Assembly: GCA_903881505.1 (NCBI GenBank)
Contig: CAIRTM010000091.1
Location: 1-64,000, forward strand
Direction of reading: 5' to 3'
Length of the DNA stretch: 64,000 nucleotides
From: an uncultured delta proteobacterium
GTDB lineage: Bacteria > Desulfobacterota > WTBG01 > CAIYCZ01 > CAIRTM01
Shown here one piece after another: positions 1 through 16,435 of the stretch. The notes beneath the pieces were generated by a model that was not told where the DNA came from, ran no database searches, and saw nothing but the letters and a program-made list of their open reading frames with translations. A program made the translations under genes and the position numbers. Numbering within the stretch: the stretch's first letter is position 1; each line of letters begins with the position of its first letter.

Positions 1-911
1 AGGCCCGTGAACTGGCGCAGGCGCGCGGCTGCCGGGTGGCCGCGGTGCTGGCCGGCAGCGGCATAAGCACGAGCGTACAGGCCCTGATACAGGCCGGGGC
101 AGATGCAGTCTATGTGGCGGATGCGCCTTTTTTATACCCCTACCGCACCCGGCCGCATGAGCGCGTTATCGCCGCCCTGATTGAACAGCACAAGCCTGAG
201 ACCGTGCTGATCGGCGCGACCTGCATGGGCCGCGACCTGGCGCCCCGGCTGGCAAACCGCTTCAAGACCGGACTGACCGCCGACTGCACCGGCCTTGTGA
301 TCGATTCGCAGGACGGCTGCCTGCTGCAGACCCGTCCGGCGTTCGGCGGCAATATCATGGCGACCATTGTCACCAGCCATCACCGCCCGCAGATGGCGAC
401 CGTGCGGCCCGGTGTGATGCAGGCTGTCCATGATGCAGGGCGCACCGGAAAAATTGTGCCGGTCGAAGCTGCCGCGGATGCGACCGACGACTGCGTGCAG
501 GTCCTGCAGGCGGTCGCAAAGCCCTGCAGCGGCGTACAGCTTGAAAAGGCCCCGGTTATCGTTTCCGGCGGCCGCGGCCTGCAGGGCCCGGAAAATTTTA
601 AAATGCTCGGCGAACTGGCCGAACTTCTCAGCGGGCAGGTCGGCGCATCCCGGGCGGCCGTTGAACTGGGATGGATCGAGCACGCCCATCAGGTGGGCCA
701 GACCGGCAAGACGGTCAAGCCGCGCCTCTACATCGCCTGCGGCATATCCGGCGCAATCCAGCACCTGGCGGGCATGCAACAGGCCGACGTGATCGTGGCG
801 ATCAACCGCGACCCCTATGCGCCTATCCTGAAAATAGCGCATTTCGCCCTCATAGGCGACGTGCATAAAATCGTGCCGGAGCTGATCGCGCAGCTCAGGG
901 CGCAGCGCTGA
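1..911 (+). CDS. etfA: Electron transfer flavoprotein subunit alpha (5' truncated by window edge)
   Basis: Frame is open from base 3 (ARELAQARGCRVAAVLAGSG...). C-terminal FAD-binding signature VIVSGGRGLQGPENF...AAVELGWIEHAHQVGQTGKTVKPRLYIACGISGAIQHLAGM...INRDPYAPI is typical of EtfA. Confidence 0.95.
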   Translation, partial: ARELAQARGCRVAAVLAGSGISTSVQALIQAGADAVYVADAPFLYPYRTRPHERVIAALIEQHKPETVLIGATCMGRDLAPRLANRFKTGLTADCTGLVIDSQDGCLLQTRPAFGGNIMATIVTSHHRPQMATVRPGVMQAVHDAGRTGKIVPVEAAADATDDCVQVLQAVAKPCSGVQLEKAPVIVSGGRGLQGPENFKMLGELAELLSGQVGASRAAVELGWIEHAHQVGQTGKTVKPRLYIACGISGAIQHLAGMQQADVIVAINRDPYAPILKIAHFALIGDVHKIVPELIAQLRAQR

Positions 912-1047: not shown

Positions 1048-3303
1048 TTGACCAGGCAGACCCGTCTTCCTTTCAAGTTCATCAGGCGCTCCGGCCTTTG
1101 CGCGGCAGCGCTCGTTGCCGTTTTTTTTGTGCAGGGCGCGCGCGCCGAGAGCCCGCAGTGGCTCACCCGGCCGCTGCCCGCGCAGGCAGCCCGGGGCCGT
1201 GTGGTCTGGCTGGCGGTCGATCCGGGCGGATATGTGTGGTTCGGCCTTGCAGCGGCTGCAGATGCCGGCGGTGTCACGCTGGGCGTGCTTGACACCATGG
1301 GTGAGTACATATTCCCGCTCGCGGGGACCCGTCCGGGATCAGGCACGGCACTTGCGTTTGAGACGGTAAGCGATCCGGCCCCTGAGGCCGGATCGCTGTG
1401 GATCGGCACCGCCAGCGGCCTGCTGGTCGTTGAACGCAGCGGCCGCACAACCGAACTGACATCCGGCAACAGCTCCCTGCCCGCGGGCAGCGTGCGGACG
1501 ATTTACTGCGGCCGCGATAACACGAAGTGGATTGCCGTCAGCGGCAGCGGCGTGGCCTGCGTTGACGCGGGCTTTAACTGGGCATTCTATGGCCGCGCGT
1601 CGGGCCTTGGCAGCGATGATATTGAAACCATCGCCGAAGACCGTCAGGGAAATCTCTGGTTCGGCTCAAGCAGCCAGGGCGCAAGCCGCCTTGACCGGCA
1701 GGGCGGCTGGCTGCAGTTCACCTCATCCAATTCAGGCCTGATCAGCAACCGGGTTATGCGCATTGTGGAGGAATCACCGGGCCGGCTCTGGTTTTTGACC
1801 CCGGACGGTGTCAGCGTTTTTGACGGCAGGAACTGGATGTCCTACACCGGCCGCAACAGCCCGCTGGGAGGCTTTGCGGCAACCTCCCTGGTTATAGACG
1901 GTAGCGGCAGCAAATGGATCGGCACGAACGGGGCCGGCCTGCTGAAACTCGACAGCTTCGGCCGCTGGACCGACTACACGACTGCCGCCGGGCTGCCTGA
2001 TAACCGCATCGACGCCCTGACAGTTGATGACCGCGGAGTTCTGTGGATTGCAACGCCCGCGGGCATAACAGGGATGGGACCGGGAACCGGCGCTGCCGCA
2101 ATGACTGCCGGGCCGGGAGAACGTGTTGAGGGCGTGGGGCGTGCCAGTCCGTTCGAACAGGCCCTGCTGTGGCAGGCCGAAGGCACGCCTGAGCGCAGCG
2201 TGGAGCTCGGCTGGGCGCTGCCGTCGCTGCCGTTCGGGGGCAGGGCCTGGTATTACGGCGCACTGTGGGCCGGCGCTGATTTTAATTTTGATGCGATTGA
2301 TTATGCGCTGCGAGTCGAGCGCACGGGCGCGCAGCGCCTGCTGCTCAACGGGACTTTTGCGCAGGCGCTGCTGTTCGTTCAGGGAGCTGTGGCGGCGCCT
2401 GACGGTTCCCCGGCGCAGAGCGGGCGCATGAGCCCTTTCCCGGAGCGGCTGCCGGGCGATGTTGCCGGCTGCACGGGGCCGGGCGCACAAATTCCTGCCG
2501 ATGATCCTGTGGTTGCCGGGCTGGCAGCCGGACTGGTGCGGCCGGAATCCAAAAGCGACATGTACGCCGTTCTGCGCGATATCGTGTATTCCGCTCCTGT
2601 GCAGAGCCTGCAGATCGAAACAGCTGCCGGCAGCGGCGCTGCCGGAGCTCTTGATGCGCTGCGCTCGGGGAAAGGCGACCGGCAGGCCAGGGCGCGGCTG
2701 CTGTGTGCTCTCCTGCGAGCCGCGGGCCTGCCCGCGCGGCTGGTGTTGGACATAAACGAAGGGGTGTGGTGCCAGGCCTGGGTTGCGAACCGCGGCTGGA
2801 TTTCAATCGAAAGCACCTTCCCGGTGTTCGATTATATCAGGCCGGTCCGGACAGGCCTGCCCAAAAAACTGTCCCCGTCCGAACATGCTGTCGCCTGCCT
2901 GTCGGGCAGGGATGACACGCCGGGCGCGCTTTCCTGGGACACGGGCCTGAGCGCTTCGAAACGCGCCGTGCCGGCCGATGAGCTGAAGCAGCCCGGCCGC
3001 CTGCGCGACGCGCGCATGCTGATCGCCCCGGTCTATGAAGACGCGGCAACGCCCGCAGCTGGAAAAATTCCGCTTGCCGACGGCATCGTTTTGCATGCCC
3101 GTCAGCGCGGCGCCGCAGTCCAGATGGTGTTCGAGGACGTGCAGGGCCGCGAGCTGCACGCGTTCACGCCCGCCCTTGACGGTCTGTCAAGCGCGCTCAA
3201 CGTGAACGACCGGCTTTTGTGGCGCTTTATCGCCCGCAGGCTCGGCTCCCTGCTGGTTATTGAAAACATAGAATGTAAAGAATACCGGGCCGGTCAGCAG
3301 TAG
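1048..3303 (+). CDS. Two-component-regulator-type beta-propeller protein with C-terminal transglutaminase-like domain
   Basis: Repeated propeller motifs (GSLWIGTASGLLVVE, NTKWIAVSGSGVACVD, GNLWFGSSSQGASRLD, SKWIGTNGAGLLKLD, GVLWIATPAGI) followed by RARLLCALLRAAGLPARLVLDINEGVWCQAWVANRGWISIEST. TTG start at 1048 is uncertain. Confidence 0.75.
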   Translation: MTRQTRLPFKFIRRSGLCAAALVAVFFVQGARAESPQWLTRPLPAQAARGRVVWLAVDPGGYVWFGLAAAADAGGVTLGVLDTMGEYIFPLAGTRPGSGTALAFETVSDPAPEAGSLWIGTASGLLVVERSGRTTELTSGNSSLPAGSVRTIYCGRDNTKWIAVSGSGVACVDAGFNWAFYGRASGLGSDDIETIAEDRQGNLWFGSSSQGASRLDRQGGWLQFTSSNSGLISNRVMRIVEESPGRLWFLTPDGVSVFDGRNWMSYTGRNSPLGGFAATSLVIDGSGSKWIGTNGAGLLKLDSFGRWTDYTTAAGLPDNRIDALTVDDRGVLWIATPAGITGMGPGTGAAAMTAGPGERVEGVGRASPFEQALLWQAEGTPERSVELGWALPSLPFGGRAWYYGALWAGADFNFDAIDYALRVERTGAQRLLLNGTFAQALLFVQGAVAAPDGSPAQSGRMSPFPERLPGDVAGCTGPGAQIPADDPVVAGLAAGLVRPESKSDMYAVLRDIVYSAPVQSLQIETAAGSGAAGALDALRSGKGDRQARARLLCALLRAAGLPARLVLDINEGVWCQAWVANRGWISIESTFPVFDYIRPVRTGLPKKLSPSEHAVACLSGRDDTPGALSWDTGLSASKRAVPADELKQPGRLRDARMLIAPVYEDAATPAAGKIPLADGIVLHARQRGAAVQMVFEDVQGRELHAFTPALDGLSSALNVNDRLLWRFIARRLGSLLVIENIECKEYRAGQQ

Positions 3304-8297: not shown

Positions 8298-9316
8298 GGT
8301 TGACCGGGTGTGCGCTCGCGCAGCAGTTCTTCGTAGAGCCCGATATAGCCTCCGGTCATGCGCTGCAGGCTGAAGCGCTCCACAATGCGCTGCCGCGCGG
8401 CCGCTCCCATGGCGGCCCGTTGGCCGGGGCGTGCGCGCAGCTGCTGAATCGCGCGAGCAAACTCAGCGACGCTGTCCGGCGCGCACAAAAACCCGTGCTC
8501 TCCGCTGGAAACAAGCTCCGGCAGGGCCGAGCAGCGGGTGGATACAACCGGTTTCGCGCAGGCCATTGCCTCGGCCGCGCTCAGGCCGAAGCCCTCAAGG
8601 CGCGTGGGAAAAAGCAGCATGTCGCACAGATTGTAGATTTCCGGCAGCTGCGCCGGCGGAACCGACCCGAGGTTCAGGCAGTTTTCAACCGGCAGGGGCC
8701 TTGTCCCGCGCATGCCGCAGGTCAATATCAGCAGATGTCCGGGCCCCAGCGCGCGCATGATTTCCGGCAGCAGGTCGGCGCCCTTGCGCCTGATCGGGTT
8801 GCCGGTGAACAAAAGCACGGTCGTATCGGGCGCGATAGCGTATTTTTCGCGCGCCGCCGGGCCTGGCCTGAAAACATCCGTGTCAACGCCGTTATAGATC
8901 AGGCGCGCGTTATTGAATCCGAACACGCGGCCGAGTTCGCCCCGGGTATATTCGCTCGGGCATACAACGGCTGCGGCATGCCGCAGGGCGCGCCGCTCCC
9001 AGCGCCTGAGCAGCAGGTGGTAGATGCGCTGCGCGGGCGTGCGGTAGCCAAGCCCGTGATCATGCACCACGTGATGAAACGTGAACACAAAGGGCGTGCG
9101 CGAGGGATAATATCCGGTGAACGCATCGCCGTGCACGATGTCGGCGCCATTCGGACGGTCGGGGAACAGCATGCCCGCCTGCGGCAGCATGTCGACCCAG
9201 CGCGGCAGATAATCAACGCGCGCGCTGTGTCCCGCCCGGCCGAGCGCATCGGCAATGCCTGAGACAAGCACGTTGGCGCCGCCGCCCGAATCGGTGAGCC
9301 TGAAGTAAACGTTCAT
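8294..9316 (-). CDS. Glycosyltransferase family 4 (GT-B)
   Basis: VVCPSEYTRGELGRVFGF, LIYNGVDTDVFRPG, LLFTGNPIRRKGADLL, LEGFGLSAAEAMACAKPVVSTRCSALPELV. ATGA overlaps with both neighbours. Confidence 0.9.
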   Translation of the reverse strand: MNVYFRLTDSGGGANVLVSGIADALGRAGHSARVDYLPRWVDMLPQAGMLFPDRPNGADIVHGDAFTGYYPSRTPFVFTFHHVVHDHGLGYRTPAQRIYHLLLRRWERRALRHAAAVVCPSEYTRGELGRVFGFNNARLIYNGVDTDVFRPGPAAREKYAIAPDTTVLLFTGNPIRRKGADLLPEIMRALGPGHLLILTCGMRGTRPLPVENCLNLGSVPPAQLPEIYNLCDMLLFPTRLEGFGLSAAEAMACAKPVVSTRCSALPELVSSGEHGFLCAPDSVAEFARAIQQLRARPGQRAAMGAAARQRIVERFSLQRMTGGYIGLYEELLRERTPGQP

Positions 9317-12089: not shown

Positions 12090-12239
12090 CGCCTAAAACC
12101 GGAGCCGCCTTGGCCCGCGGCCGGGCGTGCGCGGTTGTGCGGCAGGGGGTGAAGGGCGGAGCTGCGCCTGTCATGAGTGTGTAGGTCCAGGCCAGAAACC
12201 TCACTTTATCCTCAGCGCCGCTGCGCGAGCTATCGCCTT

Positions 12240-12421
12240 TCATCTAAAACCTTGCCTCCCGCTGAGGCGCAGGTGCGTTTTGCCGCCGAAGTAGTGGATA
12301 TAGTCCATTGACAACAGGTCTGCTCTGTGCGATAGGCATAGCGGTGGTAGCGCAGCACCTCGCGCACCTGATCCATTAATCTAAGATTCTGGTAGGGGCG
12401 GAACTTCGGCTTATTTTCCAT
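12240..12421 (-). pseudogene. intI: Integron integrase IntI remnant, N-terminus only, frameshifted and truncated
   Basis: MENKPKFRPYQNLRLMDQVREVLRYHRYAYRTEQTCCQW, then an approximately 7-nt deletion; the alternate frame continues YIHYFGGKTHLR. This resembles the N-terminal SAM-like region of IntI. Divergent from the cassette array, as in integrons. Confidence 0.85.
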
Positions 12422-12438
12422 CTTTGTGCCTTAATATC

Positions 12439-12541
12439 GTAATAAGTGGAATTTGAAGTCCTTTTTTGTAATACGTGGAATGTTCTTCCATCTATATGGG
12501 CTGATATGATGGAAGTTTCCCCGCCTATTACACGGTTAGTC
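12439..12541 (+). other. attI: Candidate attI region: two 14-bp direct repeats, an 8-bp inverted repeat and the crossover heptamer GTTAGTC
   Basis: gtaataagtggaat (12439-12452) and gtaatacgtggaat (12468-12481); CTTCCATC/GATGGAAG (12485-12492/12508-12515); GTTAGTC (12535-12541) is the exact reverse complement of GACTAAC at the 3' end of cassette 1. Confidence 0.65.
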
Positions 12542-12556
12542 CTAAAGGATTTAATA

Positions 12557-13084
12557 ATGAACAGAAATGAATGGACCGAACTAAGTCTAAAAATATTTGC
12601 ACTATTTCTTTTTTTTAAATTCCTTACCGCAGTTCCAAATTTCATCAACATGCCTGTAATTGCTGAAAAGTATGCTGGCTCGTGGGCTATGCCAGGGGCA
12701 ATTACAGGAGTCTTAGTTTCTTTGGTGTTAGCAATGGTCGTTTGGCGACTTGCCCCTGTACTGTCAAAAGCAATATGGAGAAAAACGGAGCCGCCACAAG
12801 CTATCTCAAATCCGAGTATGGATGAAATTCAAGCAGCTATTTTTTCCGCCATTGGTCTGTTCGTTTTAATAACCGCCTTGCCCGGCATCTCAGAATATCT
12901 GGTTTTAATCAACCAGACATCATCTCCGTTTCAATCAGAATCCGCCTTGGAATTTAAAGCAAAAATTGAGCTGGCAACTATGTTGGTGCAATCTGCAATA
13001 GGATTATTCCTGCTGTTCGGCTCAAGGGGGCTTGTTGCTGTGATAAAAATGGTTCGGAATCTAGGGTTAAAAAAGCAAGACTAA
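12557..13084 (+). CDS. Cassette 1: predicted 4-TM membrane protein of unknown function
   Basis: ATG at 12557 after aaaggat; four hydrophobic segments (LKIFALFLFFKFLTAVP, AITGVLVSLVLAMVVWRL, AIFSAIGLFVLITALPG, MLVQSAIGLFLLFGSRGL). Confidence 0.75.
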   Translation: MNRNEWTELSLKIFALFLFFKFLTAVPNFINMPVIAEKYAGSWAMPGAITGVLVSLVLAMVVWRLAPVLSKAIWRKTEPPQAISNPSMDEIQAAIFSAIGLFVLITALPGISEYLVLINQTSSPFQSESALEFKAKIELATMLVQSAIGLFLLFGSRGLVAVIKMVRNLGLKKQD

Positions 13085-13146
13085 CCATCGGCCTGAGAGG
13101 GACGCGGCAAAAAATCGCGCCGTGCCCCTCATCAGTAACGTTCGCA
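13079..13146 (+). other. attC: attC site 1
   Basis: R'' GACTAAC ... gagagggacgcggcaaaaaatcgcgccgtgcccctc ... R' GTTCGCA. Confidence 0.85.
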
Positions 13147-13158
13147 AAGGAGAACAAG

Positions 13159-13641
13159 ATGAAGAGCTATTTTAAGATAGGTCGTGATATCGTTGTCGGC
13201 AAAGGATTGAGTGCAAAGCATTGGGCTGGTCCGATTATTTTCGGGAAGGAGGCAATTTATCTCTTACCCAATGACGTATCTGTGAAATCACTCAGGGCTG
13301 GATACGACTCAGCATCGGCAGCCGCAGGGATGCTTGGAGGCATGATTGGTGGTGTTATAGCAGGAGCAATGCAAAGCAAAGCCGGATCAAAATCAACATG
13401 GCAAGAACACATCGTTCAGATCAATGAACTTCCACAAAATGTTCTATTGAATCCGGATTGGCCCATAAAAAAAGGTAAGCGACCGGTAATTCTGATCAAA
13501 AAAAGCGATATTGATAAGTTCGAACGTTCTGGTGGCAAGCTTTTGGTTGAAGCGTATGGTGACACCTTCAAACTGGGGCTTAAGCTATTCGGTCGTGGCA
13601 AAGCTATTGAAACTATAAGAAGCCTTGAATGGTCGGTATAG
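13159..13641 (+). CDS. Cassette 2: unknown protein with glycine-zipper-like hydrophobic segment
   Basis: MKSYFKIGRDIVVGKGLSAKHW...ASAAAGMLGGMIGGVIAGAMQSKAGS...; preceded by aaaggagaacaag. Confidence 0.75.
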   Translation: MKSYFKIGRDIVVGKGLSAKHWAGPIIFGKEAIYLLPNDVSVKSLRAGYDSASAAAGMLGGMIGGVIAGAMQSKAGSKSTWQEHIVQINELPQNVLLNPDWPIKKGKRPVILIKKSDIDKFERSGGKLLVEAYGDTFKLGLKLFGRGKAIETIRSLEWSV

Positions 13642-13687
13642 TTGCGATCCATTTTTGAAATCCGGGGGCACCATACTAATTAATTTT

Positions 13688-13755
13688 TGCCAACACCCGG
13701 CTTGAGAGTGACGCGGAAAAAAATCGCGCCGCGCCCCTCATCCTTAACGTTCGGT
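13688..13755 (+). other. attC: attC site 2
   Basis: R'' TGCCAAC ... gagagtgacgcggaaaaaaatcgcgccgcgcccctc ... R' GTTCGGT. Confidence 0.85.
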
Positions 13756-13762
13756 TAATAAA

Positions 13763-14188
13763 ATGAAATCCATAATGAACACATTGGTATGGTGTATGGC
13801 AGTTGCGGTGGGCGGGATGCTCTGCATTATTCTTCCACCGTATCTGATACCCGGAGGAATTCAGACCATATACACAGAGTCATTATTTCCTGTCTTCAGA
13901 ACTGCATGGGAGAATCTTAAAATTCTACCAACCCTGGGGTGCTTTTTAGGCCTTGGTTTTCTTCTCGGCCTTGCACAACCCACAAGATGGTTGCTTCTTG
14001 GGTGCACGACGATAGCAGCGCCACCTATTCTTGCGATTTGCGAAATGATTGTGTCTCCGACTTCTCACAATCTCTGGCCGCTGGAGTTCCTTCTTTACGG
14101 CGTTGTAAACTCCCCCTCTCTTCTTGGGGCATTTCTCGGGTCCAGAATAAGGAAGATACAAAAAAATGAAACCGAACCATCCGCTTGA
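13763..14188 (+). CDS. Cassette 3: predicted membrane protein of unknown function
   Basis: Single ORF in the cassette; hydrophobic segments LVWCMAVAVGGMLCIILPPYLIP, LGCFLGLGFLLGLAQP, WLLLGCTTIAAPPILAICEMI. Confidence 0.7.
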   Translation: MKSIMNTLVWCMAVAVGGMLCIILPPYLIPGGIQTIYTESLFPVFRTAWENLKILPTLGCFLGLGFLLGLAQPTRWLLLGCTTIAAPPILAICEMIVSPTSHNLWPLEFLLYGVVNSPSLLGAFLGSRIRKIQKNETEPSA

Positions 14189-14235
14189 GAGGAACGCGGC
14201 AAAAACCAGCCGCGCCCCTCGGCCTTAGCGTTAAA
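14170..14235 (+). other. attC: attC site 3
   Basis: R'' ACCGAAC (exact reverse complement of GTTCGGT at the cassette 3 start) ... gagaggaacgcggcaaaaaccagccgcgcccctc ... R' GTTAAAC. Confidence 0.88.
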
Positions 14236-14248
14236 CGCAGAAAATAAT

Positions 14249-14587
14249 ATGGCACTTGACTACAAATATTTCCGACCGATAAAAGCCGCTGGTATATGCT
14301 TCATCATTTGCGGTGCAATATCTGCATTAATGTATATGTCCCTCCTTAAAAATCCTGATTTTGACACTGTTTTCCGCATCTTCGTTTTAGTTAATACGTT
14401 TTGGTATCTCGTTATGGGTATAGGAATAGTATTACAAAATAAATGGGGGTATTATTTGCTTAAAGGATTCCTCTACTTTATGGTTTTAGGTTTTCCAATT
14501 GGTACATATTTTGGAGTTAAATCATTACGATATCTACGGGAGCACGACATAAAAAGCTATTTTGCAAAACAGGCAATAGATATCTAG
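14249..14587 (+). CDS. Cassette 4: predicted 3-TM membrane protein of unknown function
   Basis: Three hydrophobic segments (AAGICFIICGAISALMYMSLL, IFVLVNTFWYLVMGIGIVL, LLKGFLYFMVLGFPIGTYFGV). Confidence 0.7.
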   Translation: MALDYKYFRPIKAAGICFIICGAISALMYMSLLKNPDFDTVFRIFVLVNTFWYLVMGIGIVLQNKWGYYLLKGFLYFMVLGFPIGTYFGVKSLRYLREHDIKSYFAKQAIDI

Positions 14588-14613
14588 TGAATTATTAAAT
14601 TGAGCTGAAAAGC

Positions 14614-14679
14614 GTTTAACAATCGGCTTGAGAGGGACGCGGCAAAGAGCCGCCGCGCCTCTTAACTTTCGCGTTGTAC
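14614..14679 (+). other. attC: attC site 4
   Basis: R'' GTTTAAC (exact reverse complement of GTTAAAC) ... gagagggacgcggcaaagagccgccgcgcctct ... R' GTTGTAC. Confidence 0.88.
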
Positions 14680-14712
14680 GAGTATAGTAATTAACGTAGC
14701 AGGAACGTTCAT

Positions 14713-15069
14713 GTGAAATACAAGGACTTGAACCCGCAAGATAGCTATTTCCACCCGTGGACCACATACAGAAAGCGAAATAGGCTCGTCGCAATACTGT
14801 CTATAGCTTTTGTGCCAGCCATGTTACTGATCGGCATTCCATTAGGCTCCGTGGTTGGTGAAAACAAGGGCATGTTCATAGTCTTCTTCGTATGGGCTGC
14901 GCTGATTATGATATTCATCGATTATTCAGTTTTTTGGCATTGCCCGCGTTGCGGGAAGTCCTTTCATATGGACTTTGGGCGGTACGTGAATCCAATGGCC
15001 AAAAACTGCGTTCATTGTAAACTGCCGAAATGGAGTCCTAATGGTTCCGATCGGCAGCATGAGAAATGA
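14713..15069 (+). CDS. Cassette 5: predicted 2-TM protein with C-terminal zinc-ribbon (CPRC...CVHC)
   Basis: GTG start; two TM segments then WHCPRCGKSFHMDFGRYVNPMAKNCVHCKLPKW. Confidence 0.75.
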   Translation: MKYKDLNPQDSYFHPWTTYRKRNRLVAILSIAFVPAMLLIGIPLGSVVGENKGMFIVFFVWAALIMIFIDYSVFWHCPRCGKSFHMDFGRYVNPMAKNCVHCKLPKWSPNGSDRQHEK

Positions 15070-15074
15070 AAATC

Positions 15075-15142
15075 GTACAACAATCGTCTAGAGAGGAGCG
15101 CGGCAAAAAAACGCGCCGCGCTCCTCATCTTTGACATTCGGC
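15075..15142 (+). other. attC: attC site 5
   Basis: R'' GTACAAC (exact reverse complement of GTTGTAC) ... gagaggagcgcggcaaaaaaacgcgccgcgctcctc ... R' ATTCGGC (GTT changed to ATT). Confidence 0.83.
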
Positions 15143-15166
15143 AATGCATAGCACGAGGATGAAAGC

Positions 15167-15505
15167 ATGATTAAGAAATATAACAATATCAGCCTGGCAT
15201 TCGGGATTCCGGGATTGATTGTTCAGACGTTCGGCGTAATCAGCCAGATTACGATAATCAGCCTGGTGGGCGCGGTTCTTCTGATAGTCGGACTTGGCTA
15301 TTATGCAAAATCAAAAGGCAGGCACCCTGCATGGTGCCTATTAGGGCTGCTGTCAATCCTGGGAATAATTATTCTTGCGCTGCTCCAGGATAAGTCCTCC
15401 GAGACAGGCACGCAGGACATACGCCCATTCACAAAAATACTGCTAGTGCTTTTTATCCTCATAATTCTGGCTTTGATAGGTATCGCCATGATGGCCGGCA
15501 ATTGA
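15167..15505 (+). CDS. Cassette 6: small predicted membrane protein of unknown function
   Basis: FGIPGLIVQTFGVISQITIISLVGAVLLIVGLGYYAKSKGRHPAWCLLGLLSILGIIILALLQDKS...; ATG at 15167. Confidence 0.75.
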   Translation: MIKKYNNISLAFGIPGLIVQTFGVISQITIISLVGAVLLIVGLGYYAKSKGRHPAWCLLGLLSILGIIILALLQDKSSETGTQDIRPFTKILLVLFILIILALIGIAMMAGN

Positions 15506-15550
15506 AAAAACTGCCGCCGAAAAGCTTGTTGTTGTACGAATATGAACAAT

Positions 15551-15640
15551 GAGCAACAAACCGCTTGAGAGCGCCCCCGGGGAACCGCAACCAAAGCCGG
15601 GCTCCTGCCCAGACCGGCTCTTTCGGGCATTGAAGCTGAA
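15551..15640 (+). other. Eroded attC remnant at the array end
   Basis: gagcaacaaaccgcttgagagcgcc matches the left half of attC3/attC4 (ccgcttgagag), then diverges; no clean right half. Confidence 0.45.
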
Positions 15641-15652
15641 AACGCACAGGGA

Positions 15653-16435
15653 CTATGGCTGCAGAAAATGTTTTTTAATAAGCGTATCTTTTTCCGCTTT
15701 GCCCGGATAGCTTATTAAAACCGCCCGATATTTACCCTTAAAGACAAAAAGGCTTCCGGCGGCGGCGCCGATGATGCCATGCCTGTGAATGACGGCGCCG
15801 ATATCCTCAAGGCTTCCGGCGCCCCCGAGCACTGTCATGGGAATACTTACGGAATCGCGCACCTTCTGCAGCAAGTGCAGGTCATAGCCCTTCATCACGC
15901 CGTCATTATCAATGGAGTTGACAACAATTTCGCCTGCGCCACATCTTTCCATCTCGGCAGCAAAATCAGCCGGGTGCTTTCCGGTATTCCGAGAGCCGTT
16001 GTGCGTCCAAAGCTCATATTTGCCGCTCAGTGTCTTTTTCTTCACATCTATAACGACCACAATGCTCTGCCTGCCGACTCTTTCGGCCATACTGGTCACG
16101 ATTGCAGGATTTTCAAGTGCGCTGGAGCTTATGGCGATTTTTTCAACACCCAGGCTGAAGATGCGGTGCGCCTGATCAACTGTTTTTATCCCGCCTCCGT
16201 AGCAAAAGGGCATCCGGCATTCAACCGCGAGGTTTTCTATCATTTTATAGTCCGGCTCCCTGCCCTCCATTGTCGCGTCAATGTCCAGGACAATCAGCTC
16301 GTCAACCTCCTTTTCATTGAAAATCTTCACGGCGTTAATCGGATCACCCACATATTTGTGGTCCTTGAACTTTGTGGTTTTAACAAGCCCTTTGTTATGC
16401 ACCAGCAGGCAGGGAATGATTCTGGGGTGTAACAT
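15653..16435 (-). CDS. wbuZ: HisF-like glycosyl amidation-associated protein (WbuZ/HisF2 type)
   Basis: MLHPRIIPCLLVHNKGLVKTTKFKDHKYVGDPINAVKIFNEKEVDELIVLDIDATMEGREPDY...CYGGGIKTVDQAHRIFSLGVEKIAISS; HisF-fold divergent paralog, no histidine genes nearby. Confidence 0.82.
   Translation of the reverse strand: MLHPRIIPCLLVHNKGLVKTTKFKDHKYVGDPINAVKIFNEKEVDELIVLDIDATMEGREPDYKMIENLAVECRMPFCYGGGIKTVDQAHRIFSLGVEKIAISSSALENPAIVTSMAERVGRQSIVVVIDVKKKTLSGKYELWTHNGSRNTGKHPADFAAEMERCGAGEIVVNSIDNDGVMKGYDLHLLQKVRDSVSIPMTVLGGAGSLEDIGAVIHRHGIIGAAAGSLFVFKGKYRAVLISYPGKAEKDTLIKKHFLQP

What the first reader, a model, noticed from the sequence alone, without database searches (positions are those of the whole stretch)
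12240..12421. Integron integrase reduced to a frameshifted N-terminal stub
MENKPKFRPYQNLRLMDQVREVLRYHRYAYRTEQTCCQW is followed, one frame over, by YIHYFGGKTHLR, consistent with an approximately 7-nt deletion; all catalytic regions are missing. The array can no longer be shuffled by a local integrase, so the cassettes are either frozen or need an integrase in trans.
Basis: partly seen in the sequence, partly recalled or inferred. Interest (0 to 1): 0.7.

Follow-up and report, generated by a model that had tools for sequence, protein, structure and literature searches.

The report
Integron with its integrase gene gutted
This stretch is a chromosomal integron, a gene-collecting device, whose integrase gene has lost all but its first 53 codons while its docking site and about six stored gene cassettes remain; such wrecks are common, but related bacteria have repeatedly lost the same gene from almost the same codon, which is unexpected.

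Summary
Window 12265-12421 (minus strand) is the first ~53 codons of an integron integrase. It is 90% identical to an intact 339-codon intI in a genus-mate, with exactly 7 nt missing, and homology then stops. The remaining ~285 codons, including the catalytic domain, are gone. The stub runs into a dispersed repeat (12211-12264), of the family that also lies 3 nt after intI in the genus-mate. The attI docking site (core G at 12535), five attC sites and about six cassettes survive. Cassette starts still pair with their own attC ends (34/35 bases).

No intI was found in the 3.16-Mb assembly. However, that assembly lacks the rsmG-parA locus beside which the genus-mate keeps its intact intI, so an integrase in trans is not excluded.

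This is a decayed integron, a well-known kind. Unexpectedly, further attI-plus-stub copies occur in this genome, in the genus-mate and in several other genera of the phylum. Where sharp, their breakpoints fall at codons 53-56 ('GGKTHP'), although the stubs lie scattered among intact intI genes in the tree. Either truncation recurs at one spot or a fixed unit spreads. The mechanism is unknown.

The parts
12265..12421 (-). intI stub: codons 1 to ~53 of an integron integrase; pseudogene
   Evidence: blastn 201/223 to intact intI of G001; NCBIfam integron integrase PRK15417 hit, E 2.5e-4; tblastn to codons 1-41 and 41-57 in two frames
12303..12304 (-). site of the 7-nt deletion (between these two bases)
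   Evidence: gap of 7
12211..12264 (-). dispersed hairpin repeat (CTCAGCGGGAGG...CTCGCGCAGCGGCGCTGAGG) fused to the end of the stub
   Evidence: 77% over 61 nt to repeats downstream of intact intI in G001 (L023 1388-1721, 2630-3124)
12422..12541 (+). attI/leader region; crossover G at 12535 (G|TTAGTC)
   Evidence: homologous to the region upstream of intact intI genes, including the AACAGTG core
12440..12480 (-). two remaining TTCCACKTATTA leader repeats (12469-12480, 12440-12451); a third present in intact relatives is lost
12536..13140 (+). cassette 1 (ORF 12557-13084, 175 aa, 4 hydrophobic segments, no family)
13079..13146 (+). attC 1
   Evidence: alignment; R1 85.9 bits (model member)
13141..13749 (+). 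cassette 2 (ORF 13159-13641, 160 aa, no family)
13688..13755 (+). attC 2
   Evidence: R1 82.7 bits
13750..14230 (+). cassette 3 (ORF 13763-14188, 141 aa, membrane-like)
14171..14236 (+). attC 3
   Evidence: R1 76.2 bits
14231..14673 (+). cassette 4 (ORF 14249-14587, 112 aa, membrane-like)
14614..14679 (+). attC 4
   Evidence: R1 77.3 bits
14674..15136 (+). cassette 5 (ORF 14713-15069, 118 aa, membrane-like)
15075..15142 (+). attC 5; its R' crossover base reads A instead of G (ATTCGGC)
   Evidence: R1 85.0 bits
15137..15521 (+). cassette 6 (ORF 15167-15505, 112 aa, four hydrophobic segments) with an eroded attC
15515..15600 (+). eroded end of the array: R''-like GCCGAAA, a GTTGTAC core, then a half attC (ACAAACCGCTTGAGAG)
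   Evidence: read from the sequence; not found by the attC model

Best explanation
A chromosomal integron whose integrase has been destroyed, leaving attI and about six cassettes. Shown: the gene stops at codon ~53 and carries a 7-nt deletion, a leader deletion and missense changes, so no integrase can be made here. Shown: the array still has matching cassette starts and attC ends, so it was built by integrase-type recombination and has decayed little since. Inferred: after loss of the integrase the array is fixed unless an IntI acts in trans. Inferred: the large deletion joined intI to a repeat copy of the kind that lies downstream of the gene, at the best-matching spot. Also shown: related genomes carry attI-plus-stub copies that end within a few codons of the same place, so a shared cause for the breakpoint is likely but unidentified.
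For: Stub 90% identical to intact intI, with exactly 7 nt missing. Repeat family present just downstream of intact intI in G001 and at the stub end here. The repeat's first 14 nt match intact intI at 10/14 at only one of 1006 offsets, and that offset is the breakpoint. attI homology reaches the crossover core. Five attC sites 83% alike. Cassette start and own R'' match 34/35; no other of 120 pairings reaches it. No IntI in own genome. Stub copies at G000:C15, G001:C130 and G001:C86. Stubs in G143, G317, G046, G160, G033 and G369 end at about codons 50-60 in protein matches, at codons 53-56 where the DNA breakpoint is sharp. Stubs scattered among intact genes in the tree, for example 97.5% to the same genome's own intact copy in G143.
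Against: The repeat-mediated deletion does not explain stubs elsewhere that lack that repeat at the same breakpoint, such as G001:C130. The own assembly lacks the locus where the genus-mate keeps an intact intI. Expression and recombination were not tested.
Confidence: 0.93

Rival explanations
1. Plain neutral decay: intI was broken by unrelated deletions, and the shared breakpoint is coincidence or comes from how the hits were found.
For: Pseudogene intI are common: nearly a third in PMC2426708. Other truncated or broken intI in the phylum end at many positions (codons ~69 to 199). Two of the four stubs in G000/G001 (C15, C86) have blurred ends. Short stubs can be detected only in the close intI clade.
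Against: Within the close clade I count about nine events. At least five (window, G001:C130, G143, G317/G046, G160/G033) have sharp ends at codons 53-56 and one (G287) ends at 151. A rough binomial estimate is 5.5e-8 per 4-codon window, 4e-6 over all windows. The event count is mine and post hoc.
Confidence: 0.3
2. The retained piece is kept by selection because it holds attI plus a cassette promoter (Pc) reading outward from within the intI start, so arrays lose the integrase but keep expression.
For: A perfect TTGACA lies on the array strand at 12308-12313 inside the stub, and the same hexamer is in 7 of 10 intact relatives. The pair G317/G046 keeps attI, leader and stub at 75-93% identity per 60-nt block. 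In class 1 integrons Pc is known to lie inside intI (own knowledge).
Against: The promoter scan found no sigma-70 site in 12090-12620. The TTGACA overlaps the conserved codons Cys-Gln. Selection on Pc would set a minimum length, not a fixed end point.
Confidence: 0.25
3. The stub makes a functional small protein (N-terminal integrase domain).
For: Short open frames of 62-118 aa remain in several genomes.
Against: Between G317 and G046 the stub has 12 nonsynonymous to 10 synonymous codon changes, against 2 to 10 for intact genes. The window copy has a frameshift and changes at invariant residues. C15 and C130 carry stops or frameshifts.
Confidence: 0.03
4. Assembly or binning artefact.
For: Metagenome-style draft in 149 contigs; two versions of the rplS locus (C15 and C136) suggest mixed strains.
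Against: Four independent lesions over ~250 bp, embedded in a 67-kb contig with flanking genes conserved in the genus-mate, and stubs of the same kind in other assemblies.
Confidence: 0.03

Closest known systems
Integrons with intI pseudogenes in Xanthomonas (PMC12444791 and earlier work cited there)
   Same: Chromosomal integron, intI inactivated by frameshift, stop or large deletion, array left in place and thought to become stable; extra CALINs elsewhere.
   Different: Different phylum and intI clade. I found no report of a shared breakpoint near codon 54 or of several attI-plus-stub copies per genome.
[quoted passage not shown] IntegronFinder, PMC9024848)
   Different: Here attI and the first 53 codons of intI are still attached, so it is an integron caught in decay rather than a bare CALIN.
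Intact integron of G001 contig C80 (VGSH01000080, Deltaproteobacteria bacterium K_DeepCast_150m_m1_356)
   Same: intI and attI-leader ~90% identical; same repeat family just downstream.
   Different: intI intact there; it sits beside rsmG-parA, not beside the methyltransferase gene; its attI core is altered.
Laboratory-evolved class 1 integrons with intI1 frameshifts (PMC3510236)
   Same: Integrase lost, cassettes kept; loss restored fitness.
   Different: There the loss is small frameshifts; here most of the gene is deleted. The fitness cost is untested in this organism.

Membership tests
Integron (intI + attI + attC array) | functional integrase of the IntI family | tested here: not met
   only codons 1-53 remain, frameshifted; no IntI elsewhere in the assembly
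Integron (intI + attI + attC array) | attI site next to intI | tested here: met
   homology to attI/leader of intact relatives up to the crossover core at 12535; function untested
Integron (intI + attI + attC array) | array of cassettes ending in attC sites | tested here: met
   five attC sites, start/R'' complementarity 34/35
CALIN | at least two attC sites without an integrase | tested here: met
   IntegronFinder itself not run
IntI pseudogene | clear homology to intI with disabling lesions | tested here: met
Mobile integron (class 1-5 type, on transposon or plasmid) | located on a plasmid or transposon | tested here: not met
   no plasmid match to 12200-15660; chromosomal flanks conserved in the genus-mate

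The most novel reading that the evidence does not exclude
In a clade of desulfobacterial-type integrons, intI is repeatedly cut at the same place (codons 53-56, after 'GGKTHP'), leaving attI plus a stub at several loci per genome. This would point to a specific process that either removes the catalytic part of intI or copies attI-plus-stub units around the genome, producing integrase-free docking sites that an intact IntI could use in trans.
Probability: 0.35. Interest if true: 0.75.

Novelty: new member of a known kind. Interest (0 to 1): 0.42.

Why it matters
As a single locus it is one more inactivated integron. If the recurrent breakpoint holds up, it shows that the loss of integrases, which affects about a third of known intI genes, is not only random decay. 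It would give a concrete place to look for a mechanism, and would mean that some genomes hold several integrase-less docking sites served by one intact integrase.

Tried and rejected
(1) Whether the third tyrosine recombinase of the genome (C37) is an IntI: it reads as a phage-type integrase. (2) The breakpoint as a strong DNA hairpin: windows over codons 51-56 rank only 23rd to 93rd of 192 in folding energy in six intact genes. (3) An IntI secondary site G|TT at the breakpoint: it fits the sequence in G160/G033 only, not in G143, G317 or the window (read). (4) One ancient truncated copy that spread: stubs cluster with local intact genes in the tree, though gene conversion could mimic this. 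(5) Stub as a protein under selection: rejected on codon changes. (6) Plasmid origin: no match. (7) Named Pfam domains in cassette proteins: none above cut-off. (8) Rfam: nothing in the window at gathering score. (9) My first reading, that the breakpoint is explained by microhomology with the downstream repeat, holds for the window alone and was demoted once other stubs with the same end but without that repeat were found.

Full report
What is there. On the minus strand at 12421-12265 the sequence encodes the first ~53 residues of an integron integrase, with the frame broken after CQW. The closest intact gene is in the genus-mate G001 (contig C80; the same record appears as VGSH01000080, a Deltaproteobacteria MAG). 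It encodes a 339-codon IntI and scores far above the integron-integrase cut-off. Over the shared part the two are 201/223 identical with a gap of exactly 7 nt, and ten intact relatives all have those 7 nt. Homology stops around 12265-12269, at the CACC of 'KTHP'. The rest of the gene, including the catalytic domain, is absent.

What the stub runs into. From about 12264 down to 12211 the sequence is a copy of a dispersed hairpin repeat. In G001 tandem copies of this repeat begin 3 nt after the intI stop. The first 14 nt of the repeat match intact intI at 10 of 14 positions at only one of 1006 offsets, and that offset is the breakpoint. So a deletion between intI and a downstream repeat is a plausible route for this copy.

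Further decay. One of three leader repeats (TTCCACKTATTA) is lost, and two residues invariant in 14 relatives are changed, H27R and Y36C. The lesions are therefore several, not one sequencing slip.

The rest of the integron. Homology to the attI regions of intact relatives reaches the crossover core (G at 12535). Five attC sites follow. Each cassette's start is complementary to the R'' end of its own attC: 34 of 35 bases, and no other of the 120 pairings reaches that. This is the mark left by cassette insertion as circles, and it shows little decay since. The sixth cassette has an eroded attC. Five of the six cassette proteins have hydrophobic segments, and none belongs to a named family above cut-off.

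Is there an integrase elsewhere? Profile searches find only XerC, XerD and one phage-type integrase. But the assembly has no rsmG over cut-off, and contig C113 ends inside parB. In G001 that is exactly the neighbourhood of the intact intI. So 'no integrase in trans' is not proven. attC sites of the same type occur on other contigs: C136 (83.7 bits, not a model member), C85, and weaker ones on C147 and C88. Cassettes have therefore reached other places.

Origin. The flanking genes are 76-83% identical in DNA to G001, while the stub and attI are ~90%. The locus in G001 is different. This suggests that the integron platform was exchanged between lineages, but constraint could also contribute.

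The unexpected part. A search with the attI region found further copies: G000:C15:468-573, G001:C130 and G001:C86. Each is followed by an intI stub that ends at roughly codon 45-55, with stops or frameshifts in two of them. A search of 395 genomes of the phylum with the first 94 residues found more stubs inside contigs, whose protein matches end at residues 51-61: G143, G317, G046, G160, G033 and G369. At DNA level the sharp ends are codon 53 (window, G001:C130, G143) and 54-56 (G317/G046, G160/G033); G369 is blurred at about 50. In G143 the stub is 98.3% identical over 288 nt to an intact intI on another contig of the same genome. In G317 and G046 the DNA that follows the stub matches the DNA just after the intact intI of G143, so there the core of the gene was removed in place. 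In the tree the stubs fall among intact genes of their own lineages, which argues for repeated events. More distant intI fragments end at many positions, but short stubs of distant clades would have been missed. With about nine events, five of them in a 4-codon window, the rough probability is 4e-6 after allowing for all windows. The event count is my own and post hoc.

Mechanism. No strong hairpin and no consistent G|TT integrase site explains the shared end. A cassette promoter inside the stub is possible: TTGACA at 12308-12313. It is not supported by the promoter scan, and it would not fix the end point. The mechanism stays open.

Comparison with what is known. Nearly a third of intI genes in an early survey were pseudogenes (PMC2426708). 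Xanthomonas shows repeated intI inactivation with stabilised arrays and separate CALINs (PMC12444791). Integrase loss restored fitness in laboratory evolution (PMC3510236). The window locus is a member of this known kind. My limited paper searches showed no report of a fixed breakpoint.

Noticed in passing
G000:C15:468-720 (L141), G001:C130:136-405 (L142), G001:C86:389-717 (L143): Further attI-plus-intI-stub copies in this genome and the genus-mate, next to rplS, a malate/lactate dehydrogenase-like gene, and a short ORF of unassigned function respectively.
   Followed up: yes
G143:C111, G317:C53, G046:C20, G160:C56, G033:C1, G369:C64: intI stubs in other genera of the phylum whose homology ends close to the same codon as in the window (53-56 where sharp).
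   Followed up: partly
G000:C136 end (L131:9498-9868) and G000:C15:760-1183: Two different versions of the rplS 3' region in one assembly: one beside an attC array with no attI match, the other beside attI plus stub. Probably strain mixture in the bin.
   Followed up: partly
12422-12541 and homologous regions upstream of intact intI: The attI/leader of this intI clade has three TTCCACTTATTA repeats, an inverted copy beside the crossover, and a conserved TTCCATCATATCAGCCCATATAGATGGAA inverted repeat; likely integrase or regulator binding sites, not described to my knowledge.
   Followed up: no
L023:1-265 (G001:C80): In the genus-mate intI is intact but the attI crossover core is altered, the reverse of the window's state.
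   Followed up: no
L023:1388-1721 and 2630-3124: Tandem ~103-106 nt hairpin repeats (CTCGCGCAGAGACGC family) downstream of intI in G001, with further copies through that genome and few in G000.
   Followed up: partly
G000:C136 (L131:7916-7989, 8346-8413), G000:C85 (L132:1712-1781, 2572-2639): Pairs of attC-like sites away from any integrase, one with an AAA-ATPase-like gene, one with a methyltransferase-like gene between the two sites.
   Followed up: partly
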